This document shows, one piece after another, positions 24,639 through 28,150 of a stretch of 64,000 bases of DNA. The first letter of the stretch is position 1. The number at the start of each line of letters is the position of its first letter. The notes below the pieces were generated by a model. The model worked only from the letters and a program-made list of their open reading frames with translations. It was not told the DNA's origin and did not search any database. The translations under genes were made by a program, and so were the position numbers. The DNA comes from Kordiimonadaceae bacterium (GTDB lineage Bacteria > Pseudomonadota > Alphaproteobacteria > Sphingomonadales > Kordiimonadaceae). The DNA is taken from the NCBI GenBank assembly GCA_017640725.1, contig JAEPQB010000002.1, positions 744,001 to 808,000 of the forward strand, given 5' to 3'.

Positions 24639-25250
24639 ATGGATACGCCCACATTCAACATGCCTAACACCGCCACCTATGACCTGCTGATGAACCGCCG
24701 GTCTGTGAAGGCGAAGGACATGGAAGGCCCGGGCCCCAACCGGGAGGTTATGGAGAAGATTTTGCGCGCCGGCATGCGCGTGCCGGACCATGGCAAGCTT
24801 GCGCCCTGGCGGTTTGTGGTGCTTGAGGGCGCAGCGCGCGAAAAGCTGGGTGACGCGATCGCCAAAGCGCTCGTCGAAGAACAGGAAACCAGCGAAAAAA
24901 TCGCTGATAAAATGAAGGGCTATGCCACACAGGGCCCGGTGCTGGTGGTAGCGATCTACAGCCCCAATGACAGCCGACCGATCCCGGAGTGGGAGCAGCA
25001 GCTATCCACGGGTGCCGCCTGTCAAAATATGCTGATTGCAGCCACCGCGCTCGGTTATGCCGTTCAGTGGCTTACCGGCTGGGGCAGCTATAGCCCCAGT
25101 GTGCGCGCCGACTTGCAGATGAGTGAGCAAGAGCGTATCGCAGGCTTCCTTTTCTTTGGACACCACGGCGAATGCTATACGGCAGAGCGCCCGCGCCCAA
25201 ATTTTGAAGACCATGTAACATGGGGTTGGCCCGCAGATGCTGCTGAGTAA
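24639..25250 (+). CDS. Nitroreductase family protein
   Basis: LLMNRRSVKAKDMEGPGP..ILRAGMRVPDHGKLAPWRFVVLEG. Confidence 0.92.
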   Translation: MDTPTFNMPNTATYDLLMNRRSVKAKDMEGPGPNREVMEKILRAGMRVPDHGKLAPWRFVVLEGAAREKLGDAIAKALVEEQETSEKIADKMKGYATQGPVLVVAIYSPNDSRPIPEWEQQLSTGAACQNMLIAATALGYAVQWLTGWGSYSPSVRADLQMSEQERIAGFLFFGHHGECYTAERPRPNFEDHVTWGWPADAAE

Positions 25251-26652
25251 ATCATACCAACCAAAATCCACGTTTCTGGAACTTGGTGACGGATTCGCCG
25301 ACCCGGTGAAGGCTGCAGACTTTCCTGAAACCATAATTCGGTACCGGAATGACCGCGCGGCAAAGTCGGTTGGCCTTGATGGCCTGACGGACGAAGAATG
25401 GGTCAAGCATTTTGGCAGGTTTGAACAGCTGCCCGGTACGCTCGCGGAACCGCTGGCACAGCGCTATCACGGCCACCAGTTCAGGCACTATAACCCCGAG
25501 ATCGGTGACGGGCGCGGCTTCCTTTTTGCGCAGATGCAAGACGATGAGGGCCGTTTGATGGACCTGGGTACCAAAGGCAGCGGCACCACACCCTATTCAC
25601 GCTCTGGCGACGGGCGGCTGACGCTGAAGGGCGGCGTGCGCGAAATTATGGCGACAGAGATGTTGGAGGCGCTCGGTGTCAATACGTCCAAGACGTTCTC
25701 GATTATTGAGACCGGCGAAAACCTGCACCGGGGTGATGAGCCTTCGCCCACGCGCTCGGCGGTAATGGTGCGGCTCAATCACGGCCACATTCGTATCGGC
25801 ACTTTCCAGCGTCACGCCTTTTATTCGGATACCGAACGACTGGAAAAGCTCGTTGATTATTGCCTGACGCATTATTGCGGCGAAACACCCACCGGCAGCG
25901 CGCAGGACCGGGCGCTCAAGTTCCTCTCGCTGGTTGCCGAAAAGGTCGCCATTCAGGGCGCGGAATTGATGGCCGCCGGGTTTGTGCACGGCGTTCTGAA
26001 CACCGACAATATCAACATCACGGGCGAGGTGTTCGACTTTGGCCCCTGGCGTTTCCTGCCCACGATGGACCTGGCGTTCACAGCGGCCTACTTCGATGAA
26101 ACCGGGCTTTATGCCTTTGGCCGCCAACCCGACGCGCTGCATTGGAATGTGTATCAGCTTGGCGGTGCGCTTGCGGACATTTGCGAAGAAAACGAGCTTA
26201 AAAAAGCACTCGGTGACTTCCCGCGCATTTACCTGGATGCGATCCGCGAAAAGCTACTCAAGCGGCTTGGTGTGAAGCCCAAGGGCGATACGCCGGACGA
26301 CGAACTGCTGACGCACGTGAACGAATTTATGGCGAAGGAAAATTTCCCTTATGAGCGTTTTTTCTTCGATTGGTACGGTGGCGGCGCAAGCGCGGAGCGC
26401 GCGCTGGCAGCCCCAGACGCGCACCGGTATGGCAAAGAAAGTTACGGCAAGTTTTTCGACCTGCTGAAAACCTATGAGCCAAGCAACCCGCAAGCGCTCA
26501 ATACCAGTTATTTCCTCGGCGAAGGCCCGGAAACCCTGCTGATTGACGAGGTTGAAGACCTGTGGGCGCCGATCGCGGAGAAGGACGACTGGTCGCCCTT
26601 CTACAATAAAATTAACCGCATTCGCGAAATGGGCGCAGCACTAAAAATCTAA
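25237..26652 (+). CDS. selO: Protein adenylyltransferase SelO (YdiU/UPF0061)
   Basis: YHGHQFRHYNPEIGDGRGFLFAQM, GTKGSGTTPYSRSGDGRLTLKGGVRE, HGVLNTDNINITGE. Confidence 0.95.
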   Translation: MLLSKSYQPKSTFLELGDGFADPVKAADFPETIIRYRNDRAAKSVGLDGLTDEEWVKHFGRFEQLPGTLAEPLAQRYHGHQFRHYNPEIGDGRGFLFAQMQDDEGRLMDLGTKGSGTTPYSRSGDGRLTLKGGVREIMATEMLEALGVNTSKTFSIIETGENLHRGDEPSPTRSAVMVRLNHGHIRIGTFQRHAFYSDTERLEKLVDYCLTHYCGETPTGSAQDRALKFLSLVAEKVAIQGAELMAAGFVHGVLNTDNINITGEVFDFGPWRFLPTMDLAFTAAYFDETGLYAFGRQPDALHWNVYQLGGALADICEENELKKALGDFPRIYLDAIREKLLKRLGVKPKGDTPDDELLTHVNEFMAKENFPYERFFFDWYGGGASAERALAAPDAHRYGKESYGKFFDLLKTYEPSNPQALNTSYFLGEGPETLLIDEVEDLWAPIAEKDDWSPFYNKINRIREMGAALKI

Positions 26653-26659
26653 TTCGCAA

Positions 26660-27085
26660 CTATTTTTGTTTCTTGTAAAGCATTGAACCCAATAGAGTTA
26701 AACTGGCGCTCAATGCTCCGCTGAAAAGCAAGTCTTTAATCTTGTCAGCTTGGGCTTGCCCGAGCCAATGCCAGCATGCAGGGGTCACCATATGCCAAAT
26801 CCATGTGAAAAACATCCCTGCAACCAAGAGTGCAGCCAACCTCAAGAACCACTTTGACAAGAAGCTCAATTCATCAAGAATATTCTGCTTTCTTCCGTGG
26901 TCTTTTGTCTCGGCATCCTTTTTTATGCGCTCCCGATAGTCTACGGGGCGCAACGAGTTTGCCTTTTCATAATCCTCTGCCGAAACAGCCTGTTCCTGCT
27001 CAGACATCGCGTCTAAGAGGTTGCCATCTTCCTGAATGACGTCAGGGACTTTAGGTAGCTTCTCAGGCTTGTTTTTCTTTGCCAC
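26660..27085 (-). CDS. Small protein with charged N-terminus and two predicted TM segments; candidate toxin partner of the Panacea gene
   Basis: WFLRLAALLVAGMFFTWIWHMV and LLFSGALSASLTLLGSMLY; start overlaps 3' end of DUF4065 gene by 23 bp. Confidence 0.65.
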   Translation of the reverse strand: MAKKNKPEKLPKVPDVIQEDGNLLDAMSEQEQAVSAEDYEKANSLRPVDYRERIKKDAETKDHGRKQNILDELSFLSKWFLRLAALLVAGMFFTWIWHMVTPACWHWLGQAQADKIKDLLFSGALSASLTLLGSMLYKKQK

Positions 27086-27539
27086 GCGCCTGCAGTTCCT
27101 TGAAGTGCTCTCGGATCCATTGCTGCGGAATCACGGCACTCTGCCCATAAGTATTCCAAGTTAGGTCCCAAGGAGTGTCTTTTTTGTGCGTGAGAGAAGA
27201 CAATTGAATCCCAGTATACTTTGCATAAATGTTGTATACTTGCTCGACAATGCTCTCTTGGACATCATCAAACTTGTCTATTTTTTCAAACATATTATTG
27301 ATGGGCGAAGTAATTGCCGAGGATTTGTATTGCTTCAATGCATGATAAAGATCCGAAATGACTGGTCCATACTGCCACGCTTCAATGTCTTCCATGATTA
27401 ATTGGCGGTCTGTGAGAGCAAGTGTCCAGCCATGGCAAATATATACGAGCTTGATAAGCTGCATAGGTGTTAGTTTTTCACCATCCGCCGACGCTAATTC
27501 TATCAATTTATTTGCAACGGTTTCAGAAGCTAGGGCCAT
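27063..27539 (-). CDS. Panacea-domain (SocA-like, DUF4065) antitoxin-like protein
   Basis: VANKLIELASADGEKLTPMQLIKLVYICHGWTLALTDRQLIMEDIEAWQYGPVISDLYHALKQYKSSAI; GGAG SD upstream of ATG 27539. Confidence 0.9.
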   Translation of the reverse strand: MALASETVANKLIELASADGEKLTPMQLIKLVYICHGWTLALTDRQLIMEDIEAWQYGPVISDLYHALKQYKSSAITSPINNMFEKIDKFDDVQESIVEQVYNIYAKYTGIQLSSLTHKKDTPWDLTWNTYGQSAVIPQQWIREHFKELQARGKEKQA

Positions 27540-27562
27540 CTACATTCTCCTTAAGGAATCAA

Positions 27563-27599
27563 AAACAGTGCCCACATAAAAATCACATGAACACTGTTT
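27563..27599 (-). promoter_or_regulatory. 8-bp inverted repeat AAACAGTG...CACTGTTT in the leader of the Panacea gene
   Basis: Perfect arms 27563-27570 and 27592-27599, just upstream of SD/ATG. Confidence 0.5.
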
Positions 27600-27688
27600 G
27601 TTCTTCCTTTGTGCTACTAATATAGGCTTTTATCGGCTGAATTTCCAGTCCACAATTTCCTCGATGAAATGGGCGCAGCGCTTACGGC

Positions 27689-28150
27689 TTAATCCGCGCC
27701 GCGTTCATCAAGCGTCAGCGCACTGCATTTGCCGGTGAACTGCCGCAGCAGCAGATACATCAATAGGCCAATCGGCCCGGCTAGAAATGTGAAAAACAGG
27801 CATGGTATGATCGCAAAATGATTGACGCCGCGCGCGGCTGCATCACGCCCAACCCATGCGCCAACAAACAGATCAAATACCAGATAATGCACCCATCCCA
27901 TCAGTGCCACATTGGGGTGAGTGAAGGCGATCATAACCGTTTCTAACGTGTCAAACCCGCCGCCCTCTGCGCCGTGCCCCATGAAGGTGGCGCGCACAAA
28001 AAGCACCAGATAAAAGGCACCATAGATACACGGGTATATACCGCTGTGCACAAGCCGTTTGGTGATTTCAGACTTGGGCAACAGCACAAGCAGAAGCCAC
28101 GCTGGCAGCACCGCCAAATTGGCCGCACTGTATAGAGTTTCGTAATTCAT
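27689..28150 (-). CDS. Aba4-like (DUF4281) membrane protein
   Basis: MNYETLYSAANLAVLPAWLLLVLLP...GWVHYLVFDLFVGAWVGRDA...GPIGLLMYLLLR. Confidence 0.85.
   Translation of the reverse strand: MNYETLYSAANLAVLPAWLLLVLLPKSEITKRLVHSGIYPCIYGAFYLVLFVRATFMGHGAEGGGFDTLETVMIAFTHPNVALMGWVHYLVFDLFVGAWVGRDAAARGVNHFAIIPCLFFTFLAGPIGLLMYLLLRQFTGKCSALTLDERGAD

What the first reader, a model, noticed from the sequence alone, without database searches (positions are those of the whole stretch)
26660..27539. Candidate Panacea-type toxin-antitoxin pair with an unrecognised two-TM partner
Sequence: ORF 27063-27539(-) carries a clear SocA-like DUF4065 (Panacea) domain. Its 3' end overlaps by 23 bp the start of a 141-aa protein with a long charged N-terminus and two hydrophobic helices that I cannot assign to any family. 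Knowledge: Panacea domains act as antitoxins (PanA) paired with very diverse adjacent toxins (PanT), some of them membrane-active. Inference: the 141-aa protein could be an uncharacterised membrane-targeting PanT. The locus sits alone between selO and an aba4-like gene, as expected for a mobile accessory module.
Basis: partly seen in the sequence, partly recalled or inferred. Interest (0 to 1): 0.7.

Follow-up and report, generated by a model that had tools for sequence, protein, structure and literature searches.

The report
Known-type Panacea toxin-antitoxin pair, recently inserted
This is a small toxin-antitoxin gene pair whose antitoxin and membrane-protein toxin both match a pair already tested in Bartonella, and it was inserted as a unit of about 1 kb at the end of a housekeeping gene, so it is a real but ordinary new member of a known kind.

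Summary
A Panacea (DUF4065) gene (27063-27539, minus) overlaps by 23 bp a 141-aa gene (26660-27085, minus) with a long charged N-terminus, one clear membrane helix and a weaker second one. The pairing as antitoxin (PanA) and toxin (PanT) is well supported. The claim that the partner belongs to no known family is not: no Pfam, NCBIfam, PHROGs or PADLOC model covers it, but a profile from four homologues recruits, in its first round, the PanT of Bartonella choladocola BBC0122 (28% identity, pairwise E=8e-13). That protein (PanT_D11, cluster T12) is published as a membrane-depolarising toxin neutralised by its PanA. The family sits directly downstream of PanA in 65 of 160 related PanA loci across several phyla and phages. 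PanA and PanT distances correlate (r=0.56, 0 of 2000 permutations), and both PanA residues published as needed for neutralisation are conserved. One homologue lacks a PanA neighbour. The pair lies in a low-GC insert of about 1,040 bp between 14-bp direct repeats made from the selO 3' end; a congeneric genome has the empty site, and no other sampled congener has the pair. Toxicity, neutralisation and defence were not tested. New member of a known kind.

The parts
27063..27539 (-). panA: Panacea/DUF4065 antitoxin, 158 aa, no extra N-terminal domain; Y57 (in WQYGPV) and H118 (in LTH) match residues Y56 and H120 needed for neutralisation in the Bartonella pair
26660..27085 (-). panT: 141-aa predicted membrane toxin of the PanT_D11/T12 family, GTG start; disordered charged 1-28, helix 29-44, helix 48-100 (membrane helix about 80-100), loop WHMVTPACWHWL 97-108, helix 110-140
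27063..27085 (-). 23-bp overlap of the panA 3' end and the panT 5' end (translational coupling inferred)
   Evidence: overlap in 47 of 71 family pairs
27547..27552 (-). Shine-Dalgarno-like AAGGAG 7 nt before the panA ATG
   Evidence: read
27097..27101 (-). Shine-Dalgarno-like AAGGA inside panA, 11 nt before the panT GTG
   Evidence: read
26626..26657 (+). direct repeat, left copy: selO 3' end with its stop codon; first 14 bp (GAAATGGGCGCAGC) identical to the right copy
27666..27697 (+). direct repeat, right copy: displaced ancestral selO 3' end (..EMGAALTA stop), joined to the aba4 tail as in the empty-site relative
26643..27665 (.). inserted segment absent from the closest congener (repeat start-to-start 1040 bp; GC 44% for 26658-27665 against 54-57% around it)

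Best explanation
A chromosomally inserted PanAT toxin-antitoxin pair of the PanT_D11/T12 kind. Inferred mechanism: panA and panT are co-translated; while PanA is present its Panacea core binds the charged N-terminal tail and short helix of PanT and keeps it harmless. When PanA is lost or titrated (for example on loss of the locus or phage infection), PanT inserts into the inner membrane through its C-terminal helical hairpin, depolarises it and stops growth. Shown here: gene order, homology to the tested pair, conserved pairing, conserved neutralisation residues, insertion at selO. Inferred from the homologue: toxicity, depolarisation, neutralisation by binding. Speculative: the trigger and a defence role.
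For: Panacea domain. A 4-sequence profile recruits Bartonella choladocola BBC0122 PanT in its first round; direct BLASTP 28% over 136 aa, E=8e-13, and 44% for PanA. That strain has only one Panacea gene, and its PanA carries Y56 and H120 exactly at the published positions, so I take it to be the tested pair (PMC8832971, PMC10440598). 65 of 160 related PanA loci carry this family downstream, median gap -4. PanA-PanT distance correlation r=0.56, 0 of 2000 permutations. In 385 class-level genomes, 3 of 4 family members adjoin Panacea. Insertion: empty site and direct repeats.
Against: Identity to the tested toxin is only 28%, so activity may have drifted. One homologue (L044/L240) has no Panacea gene within about 5 kb. 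No toxicity or binding data exist for this pair. The second helix is weakly hydrophobic.
Confidence: 0.83

Rival explanations
1. The pair is a decayed, inactive PanAT: intact reading frames but no remaining toxicity.
For: It is absent from the other sampled congeners, and PanT is divergent (at most 28% to any other member).
Against: Both frames are open, both ribosome-binding sites are present, and the conserved motif residues H98, P102, W107, L108 are all retained.
Confidence: 0.1
2. PanT of this family acts on a specific membrane protein or complex through its conserved WHxxxPxxWxWL loop, rather than by making pores; PanA still neutralises it.
For: H98 in 94%, P102 in 97%, L108 in 91% and W/F107 in 91% of 64 family members, in the loop between the two predicted helices; generic pore-formers need little sequence conservation (general knowledge).
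Against: The Bartonella homologue depolarises and permeabilises the membrane of E. coli, a distant host (PMC8832971). A conserved hairpin turn may be purely structural.
Confidence: 0.2
3. The two genes are a regulator and membrane protein with no toxin-antitoxin function, or an accidental neighbourhood.
For: Only sequence evidence exists for this locus; there is one orphan homologue.
Against: Conserved one-to-one pairing in dozens of loci, correlated divergence, and a homologous tested pair.
Confidence: 0.05

Closest known systems
Bartonella choladocola (apis) BBC0122 PanT_D11/T12 - PanA (Kurata 2022 PMC8832971; Ernits 2023 PMC10440598)
   Same: Gene order, compact Panacea antitoxin (44% identity), charged N-terminus plus C-terminal hairpin toxin with the same motif (28%), conserved Y56/H120 equivalents
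   Different: Low toxin identity; toxicity of the window protein untested
E. coli PanT_Esc.col. (T3) - PanA WP_000287252.1
   Same: Panacea antitoxin (38%), charged N-terminus and C-terminal membrane helices
   Different: Toxin not significantly matched by the family profile (E about 2); different C-terminal motif
Aggregatibacter phage S1249 D11S_2261/D11S_2262
   Same: Unannotated pair of the same family in a phage; toxin 31% over 74 residues, E=3e-6, 14-bp gene overlap
   Different: Phage-borne; untested
Caulobacter SocA-SocB (type VI)
   Same: SocA also has the Panacea domain
   Different: NCBIfam SocA equivalog scored 92 bits against a cut-off of 190; SocB itself was not compared here

Membership tests
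PanAT toxin-antitoxin, PanT_D11/T12 type | Antitoxin with a Panacea (PF13274) domain | tested here: met
   71.3 bits, E=1.6e-19, cut-off 25.7
PanAT toxin-antitoxin, PanT_D11/T12 type | Adjacent or overlapping two-gene operon conserved between genomes | tested here: met
   23-bp overlap; family downstream of PanA in 65 of 160 loci
PanAT toxin-antitoxin, PanT_D11/T12 type | Toxin homologous to the validated Bartonella PanT | tested here: met
   First-round profile hit; BLASTP 28%, E=8e-13
PanAT toxin-antitoxin, PanT_D11/T12 type | Charged N-terminal tail and short helix before the membrane region | tested here: met
   AlphaFold2 model: low-confidence tail 1-28, helix 29-44, long helices 48-100 and 110-140, mean pLDDT 84
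PanAT toxin-antitoxin, PanT_D11/T12 type | PanA residues Y56 and H120 needed for neutralisation | tested here: met
   Y57 and H118 in the window PanA; published mutants in PMC10440598
PanAT toxin-antitoxin, PanT_D11/T12 type | Toxin inhibits growth and depolarises the membrane; cognate PanA rescues | not testable with these tools
   Needs expression assays
PanT_Esc.col. (T3) toxins | Homology to PanT_Esc.col. | tested here: not met
   Alleles in L008/L012 not significant in the iterated profile search (E about 2)
SocAB type VI | SocA equivalog score | tested here: not met
   NF047745 92.4 bits against a cut-off of 190
Anti-phage defence system | Protects cells against phage | not tested
   No PADLOC match; needs plaque assays in a laboratory strain

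The most novel reading that the evidence does not exclude
The strongly conserved loop (WHxxxPxxWxWL) between the two helices of this PanT family, kept from Bacteroidota and Chloroflexota to Proteobacteria and phages, recognises a specific, universal inner-membrane target, so these are not generic depolarisers but targeted toxins.
Probability: 0.2. Interest if true: 0.55.

Novelty: new member of a known kind. Interest (0 to 1): 0.27.

Why it matters
It puts a name on an unannotated gene pair and shows that the PanT_D11/T12 toxin family, which no searched family library models, is much wider than the one tested Bartonella example (65 of 160 related PanA loci) and has a diagnostic loop motif. A profile of it would annotate many 'hypothetical proteins' next to DUF4065 genes. 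The empty site shows that a bare two-gene pair of about 1 kb can insert at the end of a housekeeping gene without an adjacent recombinase.

Tried and rejected
Pfam UVR motif in the 141-aa protein (E=0.0012, below cut-off): seen in 1 of 67 family members, taken as chance. Mitochondrial COX4 matches of the family profile in the PDB (E about 3e-4): they cover only the charged helix and membrane helix, not the motif, taken as composition. Fold search against viral models: no match with E below 2; not repeated against the PDB because helical hairpins give poor matches. Single-sequence search of genome contigs and plasmids for the toxin: none, overcome by searching with PanA and reading the downstream gene. 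Possible second selO tail in congener G014: ambiguous, not used. Rfam: no match. Promoter-like sites: 4 found, 1.8 expected by chance, not used.

Full report
The observation. The window holds a 158-aa ORF at 27063-27539(-) and a 141-aa ORF at 26660-27085(-) that overlap by 23 bp. The first has a clear Panacea domain (PF13274, 71.3 bits, E=1.6e-19) and also matches PHROG 1281, a phage family of unknown function. It is the only Panacea gene in the genome. The second has no accepted family match in Pfam, NCBIfam, PHROGs or PADLOC, and scanning 67 family members one by one gave no shared model either.

Finding its relatives. Direct searches of genome contigs and plasmids with the 141-aa protein found nothing, and no other genome among 60 relatives has it. 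A phage search gave one lead: Aggregatibacter phage S1249, 31% identity over 74 residues, E=3e-6, where the gene also overlaps the end of a DUF4065 gene. Similar proteins lie behind the DUF4065 genes of Pseudomonas and Halomonas phages. I then collected the 80 closest PanA loci from genomes and 80 from viral contigs and read the gene behind each. A profile of only four sequences gathered 73 of 177 deduplicated proteins in its first round. With a strict cut-off, 46 of 80 genome loci and 19 of 80 viral loci carry this family. The median gap is -4 bp and 47 of 71 pairs overlap. Hosts include Hyphomicrobiales, Rhodobacteraceae, Sphingomonadaceae, Pseudomonas, Halomonas, Acidobacteria, Chloroflexi and Bacteroidota.

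The link to a tested toxin. One of the first-round members is the gene behind PanA in Bartonella choladocola BBC0122 (L086). Kurata et al. [quoted passage not shown] Ernits et al. (PMC10440598) call it PanT_D11, model PanA binding the N-terminal unstructured region and a short helix before the membrane region, and show that PanA Y56A and H120E abolish neutralisation. L086 is the only Panacea locus of that genome, and with the start at base 2492 its PanA has Y at 56 and H at 120, so I take it to be the published pair; the accession itself could not be checked. The window pair is 28% (PanT, E=8e-13, pairwise) and 44% (PanA) identical to it. The equivalents of Y56 and H120 are Y57 and H118 in the window PanA. 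The E. coli PanT (T3), whose PanA WP_000287252.1 in L012 has the published accession, is not significantly related by this profile.

Pairing. Pairwise distances of PanA and PanT across 67 non-redundant pairs correlate with r=0.56; none of 2000 permutations reached it (maximum 0.17). Part of this may reflect shared host ancestry. A deep profile searched against 385 genomes of the class found four members: the window's, two others directly next to Panacea genes, and one orphan (G231, locus L240) with no Panacea gene within about 5 kb. Most loci were found through PanA, so the pairing rate among them is not an independent estimate; the class-level search is the unbiased one, and it is small.

Structure. 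The AlphaFold2 model (64-sequence alignment, mean pLDDT 84, pTM 0.57) has a low-confidence tail 1-28, a helix 29-44, a long helix 48-100, a loop and a helix 110-140. The most conserved positions, H98, P102, W/F107 and L108, lie in the loop between the last two helices. Only the first membrane helix is strongly hydrophobic. From this and the published model I infer that helix 29-44 and the tail are the PanA-binding part and the hairpin is the membrane-active part.

Insertion. The segment has 44% GC against 54-57% around it. It lies between two copies of the selO 3' end (26626-26657 and 27666-27697; 24 of 32 bases identical, the first 14 exactly). In congener G005, selO runs directly into aba4, and that junction aligns to the window in two halves, 26326-26642 and 27666-27968, sharing 17 bases. 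So about 1,040 bp inserted at the selO 3' end, leaving selO with a complete reading frame but altered last codons (EMGAALKI instead of EMGAALTA). The selO-aba4 interval is empty in several congeners and holds other genes in at least five, so it is a variable spot. No recombinase lies in the insert; how it moved is unknown.

Verdict. Very probably a genuine PanAT toxin-antitoxin pair, new member of a known kind. What is shown is homology, conserved pairing and insertion; toxicity, depolarisation, neutralisation and any defence role are inferred from the Bartonella homologue.

Noticed in passing
L240 (G231:C9), about 5.3 kb into the locus; L044 1441-1731(+) and 1736-2005(-): An orphan member of the PanT family (96 aa) without PanA, facing a second small membrane ORF that weakly matches the same profile.
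   Followed up: partly
L200, L203, L204, L208, gene behind PanA: A repeat protein built of NTNTPPETLTILARDEDxxVR-type units follows PanA with a 4-bp overlap; an unusual candidate PanT.
   Followed up: no
L169, L171-L173, L182, L184, L187 and L067, L070, L150, L152: At least two further small membrane protein families (ending TTTTATVLGLYGIAAYWLYG, or containing APTNIAGFVIG..EARKWLYGLTTSALGFVFGSA) regularly follow PanA; the first joins the profile only in later rounds.
   Followed up: no
window 26643-27665 and loci L235-L238: The interval between selO and aba4 is variable in the genus: empty in some congeners, with different genes in others, suggesting an insertion hotspot.
   Followed up: partly
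window 25237-26652: selO has had its last codons replaced by the insertion while the reading frame stayed complete.
   Followed up: yes
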